DNA of 64,000 bases, from assembly GCA_032718865.1 (NCBI GenBank), contig JALUTQ010000007.1, forward strand, positions 372,001 to 436,000. The letters are read 5' to 3'. This stretch comes from Tilletia caries (taxonomy: Eukaryota; Basidiomycota; Exobasidiomycetes; Tilletiales; Tilletiaceae). Under the pieces are notes generated by a model. The model worked only from the letters and a program-made list of their open reading frames with translations, searched no databases and was not told the origin of the DNA. How positions within the stretch are numbered: the first letter of the stretch is position 1; every line of letters starts with the position of its first letter. Of this stretch, positions 16,145 to 43,400 are shown in pieces. The position numbers were made by a program, and so were the translations under genes.

Positions 16145-17116
16145 TCATCCTTTGAGAGGCTTCTGCTTGGTCTGCCATCACGATCAGTCAGTTGGCTGTT
16201 GTGCGTGACCAAAGGCGTGCTACAATGCTGGGTGCATACCTTGGATTTCCTCTTCTTCCTAGGCGACGACGCGTCCATCTGATCAGGTTCTAGCAGAGCC
16301 AGATCGATCTACAGATAGTCAAACCTCGGGTGCGTGAGCATTGGCCAGTCAATCAGCAACCCGGACAGCAGCATCCAGTAACTCACCCCGGCAACCTCGC
16401 CTGCTGTGACCCGGAAAGCGGACTCTAGTGTCTCGTGATCAAAGGGAACGATGTTTTGGATCGTCGTCTCTGGACGATAGATGATTTCCCTCATCGTCTG
16501 CTCGTGATAGTCTGGCTTGGACAGCAGTTTCCTCAGCGGCATGACTCGTCCTGTCACAGTGATATAGTTCGTTCAGAGGTCCTCACACAACAGCACTGAA
16601 GTCAGGAGGAGTGGGTGGTGACTCACCTGGCAGATCCGCCACGTAATTCTCAATCGTCTTGGGCATCCCTTTCCGCTTCGCAGTGCTAGATCCTTCGCCG
16701 CCTGGAACTGTCAAAGATCCCTTTCCGAACGGATTGGCATCATCGTCCCGTGGTCGCTTGATACCCCTCTCTTCACCCTGCCTATGTCCATCAAGTCCTG
16801 CATCCGCACCATTCCCGCCCATTCCTCCGACGTCGCCCATCGAAGCTGAGGCTGAAGCCCCAGTCGTCCCGAGGGCACCACCGCCACTGGACTTCTCCGG
16901 GAAGTTTCGCAAGAATTGCTTCACGGTAGCATTGTAAAGCGGGACGAGGTGGAGACGGGTAAGTAAGTCGTCGGCCCCGTTCAACCTGCGAATGGGTCGT
17001 GTTTCCGCGGGTGGCGCTCGACTGAATGTCGGGAAGAAAGCAGGCAGCTCGGACGAGAGTGGTGCTGCTGGCGCGACGGGAGCTTCACCAGACACCGCCT
17101 CCTCCTCCTTGGCCAT
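16145..17116 (-). CDS. MED19: Mediator subunit 19 (Med19/Rox3)
   Basis: Med19 is a head-module subunit of the Mediator coactivator. Exons are 17116-16627, 16550-16387, 16308-16240 and 16171-16145, closing in phase to 249 residues. Motifs are DDLLTRLHLVPLYNATVKQF near the N terminus and the Rox3 signature TIENYVADLPG joined across the first intron to GRVMPLRKLLSKP. A basic C terminus with PRKKRKSK and TKQKPLKG follows. The central region is Gly/Ala/Ser-rich. The ATG at 17116 is preferred over an in-frame upstream ATG at 17230, because it begins MAKEEEAV and the upstream residues look non-coding. The start codon and everything upstream of it are duplicated at 21.24-21.66 kb. Confidence 0.85.
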
Positions 17117-17520
17117 GACTTTGCTTCTGTGCGAAGTAGCCTCAAAGTCATTCAGACGGTGATGACGGTCAATTCCATCAACTTCCTGCTCGAGCAACGA
17201 GCATCTACTTCTCAGAGGTTTCCATTTCATTTCCAGTATTCCAGTTTCGATGGTTTATTTCGCCTTGCCTTTCGCAACTCACGCGCAGGGAAAGAAGTGC
17301 AAAGCATTCAAGGTGACAATTGCAGGGGACAAGAGGTACAACAAGGAGAACGAGGAGAGTTGGGAAACGGGTCGGAGGTGACACGGTGATGAGAGACGTG
17401 CGAGTTGCAGAATGCGAGACGGGCGATGACTTCGGATCGAAATTTGATGGCGGAGACTCTTTTGGAACTGGTCGGGCTGCGAAGTTGTTGGCAGGGCACT
17501 GTGGAGGGGAGCGGGTGTCT

Positions 17521-18244
17521 TCACTCGGCGACGTCCTCGATGGTCACGTTGCGGACCTGGCGCTTCGTCGTCTCCTTCTTCGGGATCGTGAGCTTGAGAA
17601 CACCGTTGTCAAACTTGCCCTTGATGTTCTCCGAGTCCACGTCGGCGTCCTTGGGCAGGATGAAGGAGCGCGAGAAGGAGCCGTAGATGCGCTCCGTGAT
17701 GAGCGGGCGAGGGCCGTGGTGGTGGTGCTGGTCGAGCGTCTGCTTGTTGCCGTCGGTCTTCGTGATGCTGACATCCTTCTCCGCCTGGGCTTGCTTGGCG
17801 GCCGTCTCCGTGCCGGGCTGGGCCTTCTTGCTGGCGTCGTCCGCACCCGCAGTCTTCGTGTCCTGCTGAGGGGCGTTGATGTACTCCGAGCGAGTCTCGC
17901 CGCTGAGGGTCAGCTTGCGCGTGGAGGCGTCAATCGCAACCTTGATGTTCTCCCTCTTCGCGCCTGCAAGTTCGGCGGTGACCGAGTAGTGGTCGCTGTG
18001 CTCGTGGATGTCCTGTGAAACGAAGGGAGTGGGATCAGCTCCGTGAAAGAGAGATAGAGGAAAGATGCAGACCGATCAAGGTACTCACGATGCGAGGGCC
18101 ATGGAAGAGGTTGCTGGCATTCATCCAGTTGCTTGGGCGAGTCGAGACGGCGGTGTCCTTGGTCTCGTCCGAGTCCTCCCAGTCCTGGAGGGGGAGGGCA
18201 AGGCGGGCGAAGGGGTGGAAGAAGGTGTCGGTGAAGACGGACAT
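17521..18244 (-). CDS. HSP20: Small heat-shock protein Hsp20, copy 1
   Basis: An ATP-independent holdase chaperone of the alpha-crystallin family. Exon 1 (18244-18089) encodes MSVFTDTFFHPFARLALPLQDW and onward, and exon 2 (18012-17521) carries the alpha-crystallin domain. The total is 215 residues. Core signatures are SDHYSVTAELAGAKRENI, KLTLSGE, ERIYGSFSRSFILPKDAD, NIKGKFDNGVLKLTIPKK and the C-terminal DVAE. A long Lys/Gln/Ala-rich insertion sits inside the domain (about residues 95-140), as in many fungal Hsp30-type proteins. The protein is identical to copy 2 because the only exonic difference is silent. A TATA box precedes it at 18392-18387. Confidence 0.96.
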
Positions 18245-18386
18245 GTTTCTGAGGTGGCTGTAGTTGGGAGTGCTTGGAATGGGAGTGCTTAGTGTGTTTG
18301 GAGAGTGATTAGCTGGGATGCTCGAGTGCTGATGTTGCGCTGCTGAGGGAAGGAAGCATCAGCGAGCGGAGGTCGACCCTGCCCTG

Positions 18387-18392
18387 TTTATA
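18387..18392 (-). promoter_or_regulatory. TATA box of hsp20 copy 1
   Basis: TATAAA on the minus strand about 145 bases upstream of the start codon, within the diverged promoter part of the duplication. The equivalent in copy 2 is TATAAAAA at 22520-22513. Assigned by position and sequence only. Confidence 0.55.
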
Positions 18393-18673
18393 TCTTGCCT
18401 ACGCGGATGGAAAAGAAAAAAAATCATTCAGGTGATGCAGAGGACAGAGGCACAACAGGGAGGAGAACTTGGAAGCAGATCGAACTGTTCAAGGCTTCAC
18501 GGTGACGAGATGTATATACGTTGCGATACACGAGACGGAGAATCACTTGAGAACGCTGGAGACTTGCGGTTCAGCGACAATGGCGCTTTGTTGAGGAGAG
18601 ATGTCTTCGGTCAGCAGCGTTCTCGATGGTACACATTGCGGACCTGGTACTCCGCTCTCGTTGATGCTGAGGC
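18393..18673. other. Spacer between the hsp20 copy 1 promoter and the murA stop
   Basis: About 280 bp with no gene. It holds the distal hsp20 promoter (an imperfect GAA/TTC array near 18480-18500) and the presumed 3' end of murA. Confidence 0.45.
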
Positions 18674-20050
18674 TCAGGTGTCCCGGAATGTCTCGATCTG
18701 GGCACCGAGTGCGTTCAGGCGGTCGGCGAGGTTCTCGTAGCCGCGGTCTATGACATAGACGTTGCGCAGCACCGACGTGTCCCTGGCAGCGAGCATTGCC
18801 AACAGCACAACGACAGCAGGCCGCAGCGCAGGTGGGCACGCCAGCTCGGTGCAGCTCCATTGTGTGGGGCCCTCGATCAGAACACGGTGCCGGTCGAGCA
18901 GCGTCACCTGGGCACCCAGCTTGTTGAGCTCGGTGAGGTAGATGGCGCGATTCTCGTACACCCAGTCGTGCAGCATCGTCTGACCCTCGGCCATCGCTGC
19001 GATGACGGCGAAGAACGGCAGGTTGTCGATGTTGAGTCCCGGGAATGGCATTGGGTGAATCTTGTCGATGGGCGACTTAAGCGAGGACGGGTACGTGGTG
19101 ATGTCGACCAGGCACGTGTGGCCGTTCCCTGCGTTATACTCCTCACCACGGTCGCAGTGGAAGCCCATCTCCTCGAGGACTGCAAGCTCAATCTCCATGA
19201 AATCAATTGGCACGCGCCGCACGGTGATGCTGGACTGAGTGACGATTGCGGCCGTGATGAGGCTCATGGCCTCGATCGGGTCCTCACTCGGTGCGTACAC
19301 GACATCGACGTTGATGGTGGCACAGCCGGTGACCTTCAGGGTCGTCGTTCCAATGCCCTCGATCTGGACACCAAGCTCCTGCAGGAAGAAGCACAGGTCC
19401 TGGACCATATAGTTGGGGCTGGCATTGCGGATGATGGACACGCCGTCGTAGCGGGCGGCGGCGAGCAGGGTGTTCTCGGTCACGGTATCACCCCTCTCGA
19501 TGAGTACGATCGGCCGCTCCGGGCTGATGTTCTTGGCCGCCTGGGCACGATAGCTGCTCTCGGTGACAACGACCTCGAGGCCGAACGAACGCAGCGCGGT
19601 CATGTGAGGCTCGACAGTACGGGTGCCGAGGTCGCAGCCACTGGCATGGGGGAGTTCGAACTGGTCGACTCGATGCATCAGCGGGCCGAGGAACAGGATG
19701 ACGCTACGAGTGCGACGAGCGGCATCCGCGTCCATTGCGACGAGGTTAAGCTCGGCCGGCACGATGAGCTCAAGGTCATTCTTGGAGTTGAGCCAGCGAA
19801 ACTTGACGCCAATGGAAATCAGCACCTCTAGGAGGCGGTTGACCTCCTCGATCCTGGCGACTTTGCGGAACACCGTGGTGCCCATGTTGAGAAGTGAGGC
19901 GCACAGCAAGGCGACGCAGGCGTTCTTGCTGGATTTCACGTCAATCGCGCCGGACAGCGTGGTGCCACCCCTCACTCTGAAATGGCTCGGCCCGGACGCA
20001 CCGACGCTGACCTGCTCGGAATCGGGCGCACTGACGATGCGTGCAAGCAT
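18674..20050 (-). CDS. murA: Bacterial-type UDP-N-acetylglucosamine 1-carboxyvinyltransferase (MurA) in a fungal genome
   Basis: MurA transfers enolpyruvate from PEP to UDP-GlcNAc, the first committed step of bacterial peptidoglycan synthesis; fungi have no peptidoglycan. From the ATG at 20050 the intron-less frame gives 458 residues, the full length of a MurA. Key family residues are visible: the Lys-Asn pair in KSSKNACVALLCASLLN, the active-site Cys in ASGCDLGTRTVEPH (equivalent of E. coli Cys115), SEDPIEAMSLITAA, HPMPFPGLNIDNLPFFAVI, the Arg of PPALRPAVVVLLAM, and DRGYENLADRLNALGAQIE. The overall pattern (IEEVNRLLEVL, ERGDTVTENTLLAAAR) is that of actinobacterial HTH-MurA proteins as I know them. 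It is not the EPSP-synthase part of the fungal AROM protein. Upstream are broken remains of the HTH domain. Horizontal transfer is the best explanation; the intact frame suggests it is still under selection. Confidence 0.93.
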   Translation of the reverse strand: MLARIVSAPDSEQVSVGASGPSHFRVRGGTTLSGAIDVKSSKNACVALLCASLLNMGTTVFRKVARIEEVNRLLEVLISIGVKFRWLNSKNDLELIVPAELNLVAMDADAARRTRSVILFLGPLMHRVDQFELPHASGCDLGTRTVEPHMTALRSFGLEVVVTESSYRAQAAKNISPERPIVLIERGDTVTENTLLAAARYDGVSIIRNASPNYMVQDLCFFLQELGVQIEGIGTTTLKVTGCATINVDVVYAPSEDPIEAMSLITAAIVTQSSITVRRVPIDFMEIELAVLEEMGFHCDRGEEYNAGNGHTCLVDITTYPSSLKSPIDKIHPMPFPGLNIDNLPFFAVIAAMAEGQTMLHDWVYENRAIYLTELNKLGAQVTLLDRHRVLIEGPTQWSCTELACPPALRPAVVVLLAMLAARDTSVLRNVYVIDRGYENLADRLNALGAQIETFRDT

Positions 20051-20190
20051 CTCGAGGGTCAAGCTCTGATGGCCTTCTTCGATCCGGTTGACAGCACCGT
20101 GCTTGATGTCCGTGGCCAGCTGGGTCTACGTGATGCCGCTGTGATAGCGTGCGTCGCGATCAGCGTGCCAACCTGGGGCAGGTAGTCGTC
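20051..20190 (-). pseudogene. Degraded N-terminal helix-turn-helix of the MurA gene
   Basis: Upstream of the murA ATG the same frame reads TQLATDIKHGAVNRIEEGHQSLTLEML, matching the XRE-type HTH recognition region that precedes MurA in actinobacteria. A TAG at 20128-20126 interrupts it, in place of an expected Gln. Further upstream, residues DYLPQVGTLI continue the homology in another frame, so one base appears lost near 20160. No in-frame ATG exists above these lesions. The HTH is therefore not translated with the enzyme, or is only partly translated from a non-ATG codon. Confidence 0.75.
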
Positions 20191-21242
20191 TCGTTCTGAC
20201 GTGGCTCGCCTACTATGGATGTTGAGATATGCCTTCTGCGAATGCGCAGCACAATGAGCTGAGTCAGATTGTGGTAGACGTGAAGGGTTGGATTAGTTGG
20301 GAAGCCTACCTCTACCAATCACCTTTTCTGCACAACGAAGTTGCGAACAGGAAGCTACGTATGAGACGGCGGGGCGTACTCCTTGCGGCTTCAGGGAAGA
20401 GCCGCATCGATCGAGCCGATGGTCGCCCTTCTGGAGAACAGTCGGGGTTGCGGAAGGACGCTGAGAGGGGAACAGATGAGAATAGAACTTCAGCCTCTTC
20501 AACAGTATGGAATGAGCGCTGGGTCAAACCCTTGCAGTATCCGCATGAGTCATGGTGCCGGAAGGAGTAATCAGAAGGGCGGAAGGGACTCTCACAAGCG
20601 CTTGGAGTATCGAGGCTGGCTGTCGGCCGATTGCTCTTCGCCTTCCCTTCTCTTGCCGCACTTATTTCGAGAATCCCCAGCCCGGAGTTGATAAAGGATC
20701 GAAGGGAGCCGACGAGGGTGCTGAATGGTATTGTATATAGTAAGAACCGCCAAAAGGCACGAGCCGGCTTGGGTCGAGAATTGCGAAGAATGAGGTGGGC
20801 CTGCCTTTGAAGGCGCAGTGTAACACTCGGAGTTCGGGTCTTGTGCGTGAAGATGTCTGATGATAGAGGTGGCCAAGCCTGCTTGTCCAGATCTGTGAGA
20901 GCAAGAAGAGGAAGGAGGCAGACTGGAAGAAATGGATCAGTACCGTAAAAAAGAGAGGATGTAAGTTGTGACCTGGACAGGTCTGCGAAGTCGTGAGTGG
21001 CGCCGGAGTGGAAAGACCACGGAGAAACGGTTGCCTACCCAGACGACCTGAAGAGCACGCGGAAAATGAATAAGTACGAGCAGGCCTACGAGAATACTGA
21101 AGACGGCCAGCGCCTTATGGGCAGTAGTCCACGACCCATGATCTGCGAGCTCGACTCCGCGCTGCAGGGTCGCGCTCGAGCAGCCGGCCGATACCATTCA
21201 GCGTCGATTCGGTCGGGATGCTGAGGGACGTCGCCGCTGCCG
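20191..21242. other. Spacer between murA and duplication copy 2
   Basis: About 1.05 kb containing only short frames without recognisable motifs or convincing splice sites. It probably holds the promoter used by murA and any residue of the inserted foreign DNA. I see no similarity to transposon ends. Confidence 0.5.
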
Positions 21243-21255
21243 CCTCCTTGGCCAT
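21115..21255 (-). other. Chimeric micro-ORF started from the duplicated MED19 promoter
   Basis: The second copy of the duplication includes the MED19 promoter and ATG (21255-21253) but breaks off after about five codons. The frame then continues into unrelated sequence for 46 residues to a TAA at 21115-21117. If the promoter copy is active, it would transcribe this truncated frame. It is not a functional Med19. Confidence 0.5.
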
Positions 21256-21659
21256 GACTTTGCTTCTGTGCGAAGTAGCCTCAAGTCATTCAGACGGTGA
21301 TGACGGTCAATTCCATCAACTTCCTGCTCGAGCAACGAGCATCTACTTCTCAGAGGTTTCCATTTCATTTCCAGTATTCCAGTTTCGATGGTTTATTTCG
21401 CCTTGCCTTTCGCAACTCACGCGCAGGGAAAGAAGTGCAAAGCATTCAAGGTGACAATTGCAGGGGACAAGAGGTACAACAAGGAGAACGAGGAGAGTTG
21501 GGAAACGGGTCGGAGGTGACACGGTGATGAGAGACGTGCGAGTTGCAGAATGCGAGACGGGCGATGACTTCGGATCGAAATTTGATGGCGGAGACTCTTT
21601 TTGGAACTGGTCGGGCTGCGAAGTTGTTGGCAGGGCACTGTGGAGGGGAGCGGGTGTCT

Positions 21660-22383
21660 TCACTCGGCGACGTCCTCGATGGTCACGTTGCGGACCTGGC
21701 GCTTCGTCGTCTCCTTCTTCGGGATCGTGAGCTTGAGAACACCGTTGTCAAACTTGCCCTTGATGTTCTCCGAGTCCACGTCGGCGTCCTTGGGCAGGAT
21801 GAAGGAGCGCGAGAAGGAGCCGTAGATGCGCTCCGTGATGAGCGGGCGAGGGCCGTGGTGGTGGTGCTGGTCGAGCGTCTGCTTGTTGCCGTCGGTCTTC
21901 GTGATGCTGACATCCTTCTCCGCCTGGGCTTGCTTGGCGGCCGTCTCCGTGCCGGGCTGGGCCTTCTTGCTGGCGTCGTCCGCACCCGCAGTCTTCGTGT
22001 CCTGCTGAGGGGCGTTGATGTACTCCGAGCGAGTCTCGCCGCTGAGGGTCAGCTTGCGCGTGGAGGCGTCAATCGCAACCTTGATGTTCTCCCTCTTCGC
22101 GCCTGCAAGTTCGGCGGTGACCGAGTAGTGGTCGCTGTGCTCGTGGATGTCCTGTGAAACGAAGGGAGTGGGATCAGCTCCGTGAAAGAGAGATAGAGGA
22201 AAGATGCAGACCGATCAAGGTACTCACGATGCGAGGGCCATGGAAGAGGTTGCTGGCATTCATCCAGTTGCTTGGGCGAGTCGAGACGGCGGTGTCCTTG
22301 GTCTCGTCCGAGTCCTCCCAGTCCTGGAGGGGGAGGGCAAGGCGGGCGAAGGGGTGAAAGAAGGTGTCGGTGAAGACGGACAT
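21660..22383 (-). CDS. HSP20: Small heat-shock protein Hsp20, copy 2
   Basis: Exon 1 is 22383-22228 and exon 2 is 22151-21660, giving the same 215 residues as copy 1; the intron also looks identical. The single exonic difference (a t/c in the codon before His of FFHPF) is silent. The promoter differs from copy 1: the TATA box is TATAAAAA at 22520-22513, and a heat-shock-element-like array lies at 22698-22715. Such identity between paralogues 4.1 kb apart points to very recent duplication or continuing gene conversion. Confidence 0.96.
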
Positions 22384-22512
22384 GTTTCTGAGGTGGCTGT
22401 ATTTGGGAGTAGTGCTGAGTGTGTTTGGAGAGTGATTTAGCTGGGATGCTCGACTGCTGATGTGTTGCTGCGGAGGGAAGGAAGCATCAGCAAGCGGTGG
22501 GCGACCTTGCCC

Positions 22513-22520
22513 TTTTTATA
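22513..22520 (-). promoter_or_regulatory. TATA box of hsp20 copy 2
   Basis: TATAAAAA on the minus strand about 130 bases upstream of the start codon. It is a stronger match than in copy 1. Confidence 0.55.
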
Positions 22521-22697
22521 CCTTTCTCCGCAGCGGGGTCCCTATCCTTCACCACCCTGGTCGAAGCATCTCGAAAGTGCCAAGCAGGTTCTGTCGAGCG
22601 ATCGCATGACCGTCCTTCACGAGCATGAAACGCTTGCTTGCACTTGACTCACCCACCAAGCCCAAATGAGGTTTCCCTTTGTTCCCAGCCACGTGGC

Positions 22698-31402: not shown

Positions 31403-33199
31403 ATGAACTACAAATCAAGCACGGCAGGACTCTCTACCACCACGGCCCTCTCCGTAGAGCTCGAACACAGCAACGAAGCTCCCTTCTCGCTCCCACACGA
31501 ACACTCAAGATCCTCGCCTGCACAAGCTTGCAGCTTCAACATCTCAGCAGACCAGCAATATGCACTCGCTTCGTCCTTGTCCTTGCCACAGCCGAGGATG
31601 ATCTCGAGAATGCGATCGCACTCTGACGCAATCAACTACCAAAGCAAGTCCGCCACCGCTTCCGACCCTGGGCCCAGGACGAGCATCAGCAGCAACAATG
31701 TCAGCGTCGGCAACATGAGCTCCTCCAGCGAGATTCGGGAGCTGCAAGATGTGCTCCGACGGGTCAAACGTAAAAATGATTGGAACATCTTCAAAACTCT
31801 TCGGCAGCCCAAGCCATCACACGCTCGGAAGCCGTCGTTGGGCGTCTTGCGAGGTCTACGGTGGAACTATGCTGACGAGCCAGCTCCACCACCTACACCC
31901 CATGGGATCGAAGTCCCCATCTCCCTCACCGACTCGACGTCCAATGTGATGGACCACGTATGCACAAGTTCGACCTCCCGGCCACAATTGCGCACCAGTC
32001 GATCCTTCAGCACGATCCCCGCCCAGATCGTCGTTCACGGCGTGGAAGTCGTCCAAAGCCGAAGGGCGTCTGCTGCCGACTCCGAAAGCACAACGCACAG
32101 CTGGATCGGCTCTTCCCTGCTTGCGAAGCGGAATGAAGCCCTGCCGACGAAGAAGGTCGTCGAGGCTCTGGGAGAGATACCACCCTACGAGGCAGAAGAG
32201 ATCGAACATCTCATCTCCTCGCCCCCACTCCCTCTGCAGACCGCCTTCCGATACAGCACTGTCGCTCCAGGCTCACGGCAAGACCTTCGATCGACCACGG
32301 GAATGGGCCGTCCGGGTATCCCTGCTTCGAACTTCCATCAATCTTTCAATCGGCCATCATCTGTCTTCACCCATGTCAAGGGGGCCACGTCGAGCGGATC
32401 CGAATGCGGGCGCAGGTCGAGCATCTCCAGCCTGGGATTCGATCAGCCGCAGCCTGACCCTCGCTCGTCTGCCGCCTTCAAAGCTTCAGCTCCTCGTCCC
32501 AACTTCATCGACCTCTCCCAAAGTGGGTCAGAAGATGTCCCGCAAGTCAACTCAGAGGACGATGAAGGGCCGATGCCGATGCCATACTTCTCGTCCTCGT
32601 CCGAGACAGAATGCAGCAGTCCCATGAGCACTTCGACGAGTCTGGAAGCACCAGTCGCACCCGGTAGCGCGGCCTCCTTCTACCCCATGGTCTCGCACCT
32701 ACGATCAAGAAAGCACTCCTTGCCGTACAGTGTCTCCATCCGATCCGGCGCAGCTGGAAATGGGTCCCAGTCGTGGTTCAGCTGCTCGACGCCTTCGACC
32801 GATGGCTCGGAGTCTCAGACGGAGACGCTGTCGACCGCAGGTGCCGATGTCGGTCACGGTATTAAGAAGTTCCCCTCCCCATCTTCCATGGAACGGGAGG
32901 CCTGCGTTCCTATCCTAGGCGGAGGAAACCCGCTCCTTCGTTCGATCACCGATCTCAGCATCGGCGGCGAAGTCGAAAGAAGAGCGGACACGGTCATCCC
33001 TTCCGTCGAGATCGACAAGCCGACAAGGTCGTCAATCTCCGCTCCGCTCCTGCGGGAGCTTAGCAGCGGGGTGGCCCCACAACGACTCGCGCCGCTCAGT
33101 CGGCTCGCGAGGACCGACGACGTCGAGACTCGTGTGGTGGGATATGAGTCCAGCGAATGGCGCAGGCTGGCGGGGTTCGTCGGTTCCTGCGTGCCGTAA
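31403..33199 (+). CDS. Ser-rich protein of unknown function
   Basis: An uninterrupted 598-residue frame beginning with ATG at 31403. It is rich in Ser, Pro and Thr and appears largely disordered. One short charged helix near residues 110-150 (SSSEIRELQDVLRRVKRKND, then WNIFKTLRQPKP) is the only segment that looks structured and could be a conserved core. The sequence has several Arg-x-x-Ser type sites (RKPSL, RRSSISSL, RKHSLPYS), suggesting a kinase target, possibly with 14-3-3 binding. The family was not recognised. It is the only long single-exon gene here other than murA and the coiled-coil gene, and no splice signals are needed. Confidence 0.75.
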   Translation: MNYKSSTAGLSTTTALSVELEHSNEAPFSLPHEHSRSSPAQACSFNISADQQYALASSLSLPQPRMISRMRSHSDAINYQSKSATASDPGPRTSISSNNVSVGNMSSSSEIRELQDVLRRVKRKNDWNIFKTLRQPKPSHARKPSLGVLRGLRWNYADEPAPPPTPHGIEVPISLTDSTSNVMDHVCTSSTSRPQLRTSRSFSTIPAQIVVHGVEVVQSRRASAADSESTTHSWIGSSLLAKRNEALPTKKVVEALGEIPPYEAEEIEHLISSPPLPLQTAFRYSTVAPGSRQDLRSTTGMGRPGIPASNFHQSFNRPSSVFTHVKGATSSGSECGRRSSISSLGFDQPQPDPRSSAAFKASAPRPNFIDLSQSGSEDVPQVNSEDDEGPMPMPYFSSSSETECSSPMSTSTSLEAPVAPGSAASFYPMVSHLRSRKHSLPYSVSIRSGAAGNGSQSWFSCSTPSTDGSESQTETLSTAGADVGHGIKKFPSPSSMEREACVPILGGGNPLLRSITDLSIGGEVERRADTVIPSVEIDKPTRSSISAPLLRELSSGVAPQRLAPLSRLARTDDVETRVVGYESSEWRRLAGFVGSCVP

Positions 33200-40459: not shown

Positions 40460-43400
40460 CGAAGCGGAATTTCTCTGGCTGTTGTCGGGAAGCTACGGGT
40501 TCTCAAACTTTCAAACTCTCCTCCCACCGCGAAAAGCGAAGGTGTACTCAGAAGGTACACGCAACACCCCTCCTCTCTCTCTCTCTCTCATCACGCGGAA
40601 AAAGTTTGGTACAACGCTCGTGGTTCGTCCGCAAGATCCGAATATAAACAGGGCTCGTCGAACATATCTGGCGCGACGTCTGGAGCTCGGCCTTCACCTG
40701 GGCCGCTCCGGGTCTGCTGCTCCTTCACGAAGCTCGAAAAAAGGGAAACGCATATCTTCCTTCCTCAGTCTGAGCACCTCGACATCTTCATCTTTCCCTC
40801 TCCGCCCCTCGAACCGTCATCTTCATTTTCTTTGGTTGCCTCCCGCTTGGTCCCTGCCAGTTCACCCTTCCACGGAGGGCCCGACCGAATCGATAGCTAT
40901 ATTCCCCTTGGCAGGTGTCCGGCTTTCCCGACAAGTTACAGATGTCGTTGGGACTTCTTTCGTGGGGTTTGGGTCTACGGACCTCTTCTGCTTTTTCCGT
41001 TTCGTTTTGCCTCTTCTTTCGGTTCAGTCCTCCTCTCCCTTCTCGGCTTATCCCCCCTCCCCCGGGTCTTTGTTCAGTGGTCACATCCTTTCACCCTCCC
41101 CGTCTTCTCCTTTACCTATTCGAGGAAACCCCCTTTCAACTTTTCCCGCCTATTCCCCCCCTTCCTCCGCTGTTCCTTCCCTTCTTCTTCTTGATTTTGA
41201 TCACGGAATACACTGGGCGCTTCTTTCGTCGTCTGTCTGTTTCGCGTGTTTCCCCCTTCTAGGTATCTCCTCCCAAAAATCCAGGGCTATACCTTAACGC
41301 CTGCCTAATGCGAGGAAATCTGTTAAGAATCAAGCAACTTGCCTATACATAATCTTATGCTTTAAGTAGCAGTCTGTAGGATTCACCGGAACAATGATAC
41401 GCCTTCAGGCTTCAGTAGCTTCAGTATTAACTGTTAAGCAGTACTGGGTTCCAGCAGTACGAACCATCAAATGTTAAGTGTTAAGTACATATCAAGTATT
41501 ATTGAGTATGTTAAGTGTGAAGTATGTGATGAGTATTAAATGTTAAGCATTAAGCGTTAAGCATTGAGCATTCATTGAGCATTATTATTAAGTGTGTTAA
41601 ATATCAAGTATGTATTAAGCATCAAGTGTATTCATTGAGCATTATTAAATTAAGTGTGTTAAATATCAAGTTGTATTAAGCATCAAATGTTAAGTATATT
41701 GAGCATTATGTTCAGAATTAAATGTTAAGTATCAAGAATTAAATGTTAAGTATTAAGAATTAAATGTTAAGTATCAAGAATTAAATGTTAAGTATTAAGA
41801 ATTAATTGTTGAGTATTAAGAATTAAATATTAAGTATTTAACATAAGTATTGAAAATTGTAGATAAGTATTAAACCTCATTTATTGAAGACCAAGGCTGA
41901 AATATTAAACCCTGAAAAACATAAGTTCATATTGAGCTATCTCGAAGATGCTTCTTCTTCGAACTCCTTCTACGTGACTACTACGTACACCACCTGCTTA
42001 CTGACCATCAGTGAATTATTATCACACCCATGCTGCTCACAGGAACAGACAGGAGATACCTACTTCTGCGGTAAAATCTATGTACACTCATATATTAACA
42101 GCTGCGAGATAATGCTGTGTCCTTACGAGCATGAACTCACTTTTATCTTATACATACGCTTGATGTCCAAAATATCCGGGCTCCAGGTTGTTCCGACTGT
42201 CCTTGTACAGACTTAAAAGCTTAGAAGATCGTCTGAAATTCAACACTCAATCACTGAAACTCTGGAAGGTTGTGTGGAGCGTGTGTAATGTGTATGGTGC
42301 ATATGCTATTTGACATCTCCATACTGTCGCACTGATTGCTCCGTTGGTTGCTACTTGCTGCTGCTGGATGCTGCTTGGATCTTCATGATGCTGATGCACG
42401 GATGCACTATGCACCATTGACGATTGTTCCTCTTGCCGAGAGAACCTGCTGCGAACGTTTAACATCTACGTGCACATTATAAGGTCCGGGAACTGATCTG
42501 GATGATTGTTCGCTGAGGAAGATGTTGAACGCTGTATGTACATACATAATAATACAGCTGAATGTACTGAATGTTCCATGCATGACTCCGACGGCATGAT
42601 ACATATGCGACTATAAGTGACTGCATACCTGTCGAGTGTCGGCGCTATCATTATTCTCCGTCATTATTGTTTGACCTCAAGATAAATTCTTCTGTCGATC
42701 TTTCGCTTAACACGTCGCTCAAAAACTTGCCAATATACAGTAGTGGGTGCGTTCTTGCGATGGAGCCTCCCATTCAGATCTGTTTTCGGAGGTCCACACT
42801 TCAAGACCGTTCATCACCTGCGCCCAGCGGGGGAGCCGGGCTCGGACAGGGTGACCGAGGATGATGATGAGAAAAGTACAGGATGAAAGTGAAGGTGAAG
42901 AGTGAAGTCGGGACCGCGGGAAAGATCCACTAACGCTGATCTGTTTGTTTGATCTGCGGTCTGCCCAGAAAATAAAGACCGGGTAATAAGTTGAGTGAAG
43001 CACCTTGTCTCACACAGACGACGGATCGCTAGGCGCTAGACTTAAAACCCAAGAGGGAAAGTTGGTTAGGCTGGGCGGGTGCGGTGTTTTTGTTCGCCGC
43101 TGTGTGGACGGGTGGACCACAGCAGTGGAGCTGTGGTTTGAGTGAGGTGTCCAGCCGCCGAGGTCGGGCAGGTGGGTGCAGGCGTGCAGCATGTGGGGAG
43201 TATATGTGCATACCGCGAGCGATCTGGGCGCGAAACACGATTTGATCTCCACTTCTCTGTGCGTGGTCGACTGATTTGTGTATTGTCTCTGCTGCTACGC
43301 CCCCAGGCTCGTCTCTGGTCTGGCCGTCGGTCGTGCACACCTTCCACCATCTCCGGTCGTCGCTCCCACTACACAAGGCTGGATCTACCTGCTTTCTGGC

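What the first reader, a model, noticed from the sequence alone, without database searches (positions are those of the whole stretch)
18674..20190. Bacterial peptidoglycan enzyme MurA inside a fungal genome
A full-length MurA with intact catalytic Cys, substrate Lys-Asn and C-terminal Arg motifs, and no introns, sits between spliced fungal genes. Fungi have no peptidoglycan, so the enzyme must have another role (perhaps acting on the UDP-GlcNAc pool, on bacterial wall precursors or as a moonlighting enzyme), or be a recent acquisition under weak selection. An intact 458-codon frame argues against neutral decay.
Basis: partly seen in the sequence, partly recalled or inferred. Interest (0 to 1): 0.92.

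Follow-up and report, generated by a model that had tools for sequence, protein, structure and literature searches.

The report
Bacterial cell-wall enzyme in bunt fungus
A wheat bunt fungus (Tilletia) carries a gene for MurA, the first enzyme of bacterial cell-wall building, taken from a soil actinobacterium; its DNA-binding front part is broken while the enzyme part is intact, although fungi have no such wall.

Summary
Confirmed. Window 18674-20050 (minus strand) encodes an intact 458-residue MurA. The host is a wheat-bunt Tilletia (T. caries/controversa/laevis group). The nearest relatives are 511-residue fusions of a helix-turn-helix (HTH) domain to MurA from Aeromicrobium (85% identity). 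In the fungus the HTH part is broken; the MurA part has no stop or indel and keeps every catalytic residue checked. Contamination is unlikely: decayed copies joined to remnants of the same host gene (HSP20) lie on two other contigs, composition is shifted towards the host, and a protein database holds the same protein on 8 other contigs (sources not shown). In 5 of 5 Aeromicrobium genomes the HTH-MurA is the only MurA match over the cut-off, so the transferred gene was probably a housekeeping enzyme. No MurB was found in the fungus, so the product, if made, would be a dead end. Purifying selection inside the fungus is suggested, not shown; expression is untested. Best reading: a single transferred gene that shed its repressor domain and probably still makes enolpyruvyl-UDP-GlcNAc from the chitin precursor. 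By-product: in 8 of 10 bacterial genomes one palindrome, once per genome, sits at this gene's promoter, pointing to an enzyme that controls its own gene.

The parts
18674..20050 (-). MurA coding sequence, 458 aa, intronless, stop codon included
   Evidence: AlphaFold2 mean pLDDT 88.5; the 45 best PDB folds are MurA or NikO
20051..20202 (-). Remnant of the N-terminal helix-turn-helix domain of the bacterial parent: start codon lost, one frameshift, one in-frame stop, one in-frame deletion
   Evidence: nucleotide alignment with 8 bacterial loci; frames
20223..20229 (-). Remaining half (TATCTCA) of the donor family's operator palindrome; second half decayed
   Evidence: alignment with bacterial promoters; palindrome defined; its role as operator is inferred
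18401..18654 (-). Decayed 3' end of an older HSP20 copy, just downstream of the MurA stop codon
   Evidence: 62% identity to 17281-17567 over 293 columns, E 1.4e-13
17095..18396 (-). Direct repeat copy 1 holding a spliced HSP20 gene (coding span 17521-18244)
21234..22524 (-). Direct repeat copy 2 with the same HSP20 gene (coding span 21660-22383), about 4.14 kb from copy 1
   Evidence: 98% identity between copies; identical 215-aa proteins; Pfam
20240..21233 (.). About 1 kb between the MurA upstream remnant and repeat copy 2; only weak Aeromicrobium matches (E 0.09) and one 76% match elsewhere in the fungal genome

Best explanation
An ancestor of this wheat-bunt Tilletia took up one actinobacterial gene, an HTH-MurA fusion of the Aeromicrobium type with a short piece of its promoter, into an array of HSP20 genes (shown by sequence). 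The HTH part and its operator decayed; the MurA domain stayed intact, and its first ATG now opens a 458-residue frame (shown). A [MurA + HSP20] block was copied elsewhere, and those copies are broken (shown). The retained protein most likely still does MurA chemistry in the cytosol, moving enolpyruvate from PEP to UDP-GlcNAc through Cys139 (inferred from fold and residues). As no MurB was found, it would stop at enolpyruvyl-UDP-GlcNAc and could act by drawing on or modulating the UDP-GlcNAc pool that feeds chitin (inference, untested).
For: The 119 other proteins listed are 497-522 aa HTH+EPSP-synthase fusions; those with an organism name are Actinobacteria (one says only soil metagenome); top identity 85%. 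Trees place it among them. At 12 of 12 catalytic-type positions checked the fungus has the residue seen in MurA; 10 of the 12 are invariant in 190 distinct bacterial sequences. The fold matches MurA, TM 0.85/0.93 to 1naw. Lesions: one frameshift, one stop and one in-frame deletion in 159 bp of HTH, none in 1374 bp of MurA; if spread evenly, P about 0.011 for two, 0.0011 for three. Whole-branch dN/dS 0.16-0.18, bootstrap 0.11-0.25. In Aeromicrobium this is the only MurA match over the cut-off (5 of 5 genomes). GC3 0.806 lies between five bacterial loci (0.904-0.975) and four host ORFs (0.66-0.76). Broken copies beside HSP20 remnants on C27 and C39.
Against: The dN/dS branch includes an unknown stretch inside the donor lineage. 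Fifteen of 246 nearly invariant columns are changed; the worst of 190 bacteria has 7, and two of the fifteen are 2 and 4 residues from the catalytic Cys, so constraint looks relaxed. At codon positions 1+2 of conserved columns, HTH against MurA is not significant (9/79 against 49/789, P 0.094). Subtracting by hand a branch as long as that of L026 (table) leaves a codon-position ratio that could be near neutral. The lesion test is after the fact and conditioned on an intact ORF having been noticed. It falls short of the murA equivalog cut-off. No expression or activity data.
Confidence: 0.55

Rival explanations
1. A passenger: the transferred gene is not used and the MurA frame is intact because too few mutations have hit it.
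For: Only 1 change in 214 bp on the window copy since the relic copies split off; zero stops is not very unlikely for about 100 neutral changes (0.07-0.17); 15 changes at nearly invariant columns.
Against: The HTH part of the same gene has three disabling or indel lesions in 159 bp while MurA has none in 1374 bp; HTH columns changed more often than MurA columns, 16/92 against 82/949, P 0.013.
Confidence: 0.3
2. A repurposed protein: the fold is kept but the acceptor or role has changed, for example another nucleotide sugar or a non-catalytic binding role.
For: Changes beside the catalytic Cys (Y135H, G137S) at columns nearly invariant in bacteria; NikO has the same fold (TMq 0.80-0.81) and, as recalled, another acceptor.
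Against: All catalytic residues checked are kept; similarity to NikO is lower than to MurA (62.7 bits against 165.4).
Confidence: 0.12
3. Bacterial contamination or an assembly join.
For: High similarity to living bacteria; flanked by long near-identical repeats, where assemblers can err. No reads could be checked.
Against: The locus sits inside a 2.69-Mb contig; a diverged copy (85% nt) lies beside an HSP20 remnant on two other contigs; composition shifted towards the host; the database protein sits on 8 contigs, longest 184,534 bp, so none is this contig (their sources are not shown).
Confidence: 0.02
4. A native eukaryotic EPSP-synthase relative (AROM type).
For: Same Pfam family PF00275.
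Against: aroA model 56.5 bits, murA 290.6; the listed relatives are bacterial HTH-MurA at 77-85% identity and the trees place it among them. AROM sequences themselves were not put in a tree.
Confidence: 0.005

Closest known systems
Actinobacterial HTH-MurA fusion (Aeromicrobium, Nocardioides, Brachybacterium, Streptomyces)
   Same: MurA domain 85% identical at best, same catalytic residues
   Different: Fungal copy has a broken HTH domain and half an operator, and lies in a eukaryotic chromosome
Wolbachia-derived murA in the ant Pheidole pallidula (PMC13320244, passages seen)
   Same: A lone full-length bacterial murA in the nuclear genome of a eukaryote without peptidoglycan, reported from one species
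   Different: There the donor is an endosymbiont, the host an animal, and RNA-seq shows expression (with a caution about an overlapping exon); here the donor type is an actinobacterium, the host a fungus, expression unknown
Mealybug murA-murF set (PMC5664097, passage seen)
   Same: murA moved to a eukaryotic nucleus
   Different: There murA to murF and ddlB, thought to serve nested symbionts; here MurA with no MurB found
NikO enolpyruvyl transferase (PDB 4fqd)
   Same: MurA-like fold; different acceptor (recalled)
   Different: More distant by sequence and fold

Membership tests
MurA (UDP-GlcNAc enolpyruvyl transferase) | Sequence family score | tested here: inconclusive
   Passes subfamily NF006873 (311.3 against 297) but not the equivalog TIGR01072 (290.6 against 392.7); ten bacterial HTH-MurAs score 318-331 in NF006873; they were not scored with TIGR01072
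MurA (UDP-GlcNAc enolpyruvyl transferase) | Two-domain enolpyruvyl transferase fold | tested here: met
   Model pLDDT 88.5; top PDB hits are MurA
MurA (UDP-GlcNAc enolpyruvyl transferase) | Catalytic residues (Lys22, Asn23, Arg91, Cys115, Arg120, Asp305, Arg331, Arg371, Arg397 in E. coli numbering, recalled) | tested here: met
   K42, N43, R115, C139, R144, D342, R368, R410, R436; alignments to three solved MurAs
MurA (UDP-GlcNAc enolpyruvyl transferase) | Enzyme activity | not testable with these tools
   Needs protein
Actinobacterial HTH-MurA fusion | Nested in the clade | tested here: met
   Inside clades of 15 and 16 members (Aeromicrobium, Brachybacterium, Mumia and other Propionibacteriales) with 96 and 99% bootstrap; nodes further in 31-72%; FastTree local supports 0.33-0.89 on the inner nodes
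Actinobacterial HTH-MurA fusion | Intact N-terminal HTH domain and promoter palindrome | tested here: not met
   HTH broken, half of the palindrome lost
Horizontal gene transfer into a fungus | Physical linkage with host genes | tested here: met
   HSP20 repeats on both sides, relic pairs on two other contigs
Horizontal gene transfer into a fungus | Expression by the host | not testable with these tools
   No RNA data held

The most novel reading that the evidence does not exclude
A peptidoglycan-free fungus keeps under selection a bacterial MurA freed from its built-in repressor, which makes enolpyruvyl-UDP-GlcNAc from the chitin precursor: a lone first step of wall synthesis turned into a new branch of fungal amino-sugar metabolism.
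Probability: 0.4. Interest if true: 0.82.

Novelty: new variant of a known kind. Interest (0 to 1): 0.64.

Why it matters
MurA is taken to be a bacterial enzyme, with exceptions in plastid- or symbiont-bearing lineages (recalled). A lone MurA in a plant-pathogenic fungus, with one domain broken and the other intact, asks what a single peptidoglycan enzyme can do in a chitin-walled cell. Broken copies in the same genome give a built-in yardstick. The donor family also looks like an enzyme that represses its own gene through a single genomic operator.

Tried and rejected
A protein search with the 598-aa ORF at 31403 gave no named relative; DED1 was used for the host instead. No 5.8S rRNA was found in the genome, so no barcode identification. 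DNA of the Aeromicrobium flanks (L022, about 6 kb either side) matched nothing in the fungal genome; those searches had no positive control, so they do not show that murA came alone. A PDB search with pyruvate carboxylase did not help to name the host. AROM origin and contamination judged very unlikely (see rivals). In one search several bacterial frames were wrongly extended (L021 and L035 among the eight whose GC3 was printed); of the eight, the five whose ends were printed clean (L022, L023, L024, L026, L028) are used, and L021, L035 and L053 are dropped; frames were redone. The GC3 comparison sets whole bacterial genes against the fungal MurA part.

A possible 5' intron that would skip the broken HTH was looked at by eye in the sequence; its donor site is poor and nothing tests it, so no claim is made.

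Paper searches. No listing showed a fungal MurA by title or abstract; the listed papers were not all opened; subscription papers and preprints are not held.

Full report
Observation. On the minus strand 18674-20062 is open for 462 codons from a TTG; the first ATG is at 20050 and gives 458 residues, the form found in the protein database (P0001). Pfam gives EPSP_synthase, 142.8 bits. NCBIfam gives NF006873 at 311.3 bits (cut-off 297), the murA equivalog at 290.6 (cut-off 392.7) and aroA at 56.5. Solved MurAs match down to E 1.7e-47. AlphaFold2 on a 33-row alignment gives mean pLDDT 88.5; the best PDB folds are MurA, then NikO, with AroA-type EPSP synthases from rank 46.

Host. The DED1 helicase exon at 50978-52945 matches Tilletia controversa P0122 at 643 of 653 aligned residues; the ten differences are the first ten aligned columns, which I take to lie before the exon. 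T. horrida (two) and T. maclaganii DED1 are 91-94% identical over the part aligned. The host is therefore of the T. caries/controversa/laevis group (that these three are near-identical comes from passages of PMC9172201 and PMC7184893); which of them cannot be told. No row is visibly named T. indica or T. walkeri, so they were not compared. The genome has 38.1 Mb in 40 contigs; passages of PMC9172201 give 29-32 Mb for short-read and 49.3 Mb for one hybrid assembly of these species.

Origin. Of 8000 scored candidates (those sharing most words) the best 120 were listed: P0001 itself and 119 proteins of 497-522 residues with HTH plus EPSP-synthase domains; those with an organism name are Actinobacteria, one says only soil metagenome, many have no name; best 85% (a MAG of Aeromicrobium), lowest listed 77%. 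P0001 alone lacks the HTH domain. No second eukaryote is named in the list, but only the top 120 could be seen. With 47 GTDB loci, IQ-TREE puts the fungal protein beside Aeromicrobium sp. Root495, inside clades of 15 and 16 members with 96 and 99% bootstrap; nodes further in are weak (31-72%) and its terminal branch is long, 0.277. FastTree with 124 others puts it beside P0002-P0004 with local support 0.33 and in an 11-member group with 0.87; its branch is the longest, 0.203. The exact donor is not resolved.

What the gene was. In 10 genomes searched with NF006873, all have the HTH-MurA; in 7 of 10, including 5 of 5 Aeromicrobium, it is the only match over the cut-off, the next being 25-52 bits; the other three (Brachybacterium, Streptomyces, Actinopolymorpha) have one or two further strong matches at 490-549 bits. 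So in the donor genus it is probably the housekeeping MurA (drafts; one model only). Upstream of it lies a palindrome ATCTCA-N(2-6)-TGAGAT: 64 of 80 loci have it within 150 bp of the start, 16 do not at exact match (many of these show near-variants), and there are none in the remaining 1.01 Mb of those loci. Across whole genomes the N4 form occurs exactly once in 8 of 10, each time about 240 bases before the MurA-domain match of the HTH-murA gene (positions compared), and not at all in the other two; the reversed control pattern occurs in none. This points to self-repression, an inference. The listing, one search, showed no paper on it.

What happened in the fungus. Aligned with 8 bacterial loci, the fungal DNA matches to just beyond the promoter: one half of the palindrome (20223-20229) is left, the start codon is gone, and the HTH part holds one frameshift, one in-frame stop and one in-frame deletion between 20105 and 20202. 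From 20050 on, the MurA frame has no stop or indel. No Aeromicrobium match was found past the MurA end; just after it lies a decayed HSP20 3' end (18401-18654, 62% identity, E 1.4e-13). So the gene sits in an old HSP20 array. On both sides are near-identical direct repeats of about 1.3 kb, each with an intact spliced HSP20 gene.

Broken copies. Contigs C27 and C39 each carry an 82-codon MurA fragment (73 and 72% identity) with a 12-base deletion and a larger one, beside an HSP20 remnant with 2 stops in its first 50 codons in both. The two largest shared blocks of the two contigs are 98.6 and 99.2% identical; four smaller ones 88-95%. Over 214 aligned bases, relics and window share 14 changes not seen in five bacteria; relics alone have 17 (9 amino-acid, 8 silent), the window copy 1; at 3 the two relics differ and 3 could not be polarised. 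17 against 1 has P 0.00014, silent 8 against 0 has P 0.008. Silent sites differ too, so selection on the protein alone does not explain the asymmetry; relic loci may mutate faster. This I cannot explain.

Is it kept by selection? Three-way distances with five Aeromicrobium pairs give dN/dS 0.164-0.179 for the fungal branch (bootstraps 0.112-0.252), against 0.129-0.197 between the bacteria; the branch includes donor time. Changes at columns conserved in six Aeromicrobium: HTH 16 of 92, MurA 82 of 949, P 0.013; at codon positions 1+2 alone 9 of 79 against 49 of 789, P 0.094; at position 3, 7 of 13 against 33 of 160, P 0.012. Chance of no stop in MurA: 0.007-0.035 for 188 changes, 0.07-0.17 for 100 (188 is my estimate from the identities). 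Placement of the lesions in the HTH tenth: 0.011 or 0.0011, after the fact. Against: 15 of 246 nearly invariant columns are changed, at most 7 in any of 190 bacteria, and private changes at positions 1+2 run at 0.064 per site against 0.001-0.030 in six bacteria. Verdict: constraint suggested, relaxed, not proven.

Composition. GC3 is 0.806; five bacterial loci 0.904-0.975; four host ORFs 0.66-0.76. At conserved columns 57 changes are GC to AT and 15 the reverse; among six bacteria the same count runs from 9:10 to 29:3, so the excess alone is not proof. Together this fits residence in the host.

Function. The nine catalytic residues (labels recalled from E. coli) are all kept. A MurB search found nothing in the fungal genome while 10 of 14 control genomes rang; MurC-F were not searched. 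The likely product is then enolpyruvyl-UDP-GlcNAc without onward step. Role in the cell: inference only.

Known kin. Passages of PMC13320244 describe a lone Wolbachia murA in one ant species, expressed, possibly with 5' non-coding exons; a passage of PMC5664097 lists murA to murF in a mealybug. In PMC9172201 and PMC7184893 the terms MurA, carboxyvinyltransferase and horizontal gene transfer do not occur in the main text; the former asks whether a trimethylamine pathway came from bacteria and found no such genes (passages). In the searches no listing showed a fungal MurA.

Noticed in passing
L022-L100 upstream of HTH-murA; G002-G009: Palindrome ATCTCA-N4-TGAGAT at the HTH-murA promoter: present (spacer 2-6) in 64 of 80 loci, and exactly once per genome in 8 of 10 genomes, each time at this gene: a MurA that probably represses its own transcription through one operator.
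   Followed up: partly
17095-18396 and 21234-22524: Two near-identical HSP20 genes encoding identical 215-aa proteins flank the insert; a third, decayed HSP20 end lies at 18401-18654: an HSP20 array with recent duplication or gene conversion.
   Followed up: partly
G000:C27 about 342600-352700 and C39 (L101-L104): About 10 kb in two blocks shared at 98.6 and 99.2% between two contigs carries MurA and HSP20 relics: recent segmental duplication.
   Followed up: partly
relic MurA fragments (L002, L003) against window: Relics have 17 derived changes to the window copy's 1 in 214 bp, silent sites included; selection on the protein alone does not explain it.
   Followed up: partly
41001-43000: GC falls to 0.41 where most of the window is 0.53-0.60, perhaps a transposon or repeat.
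   Followed up: no
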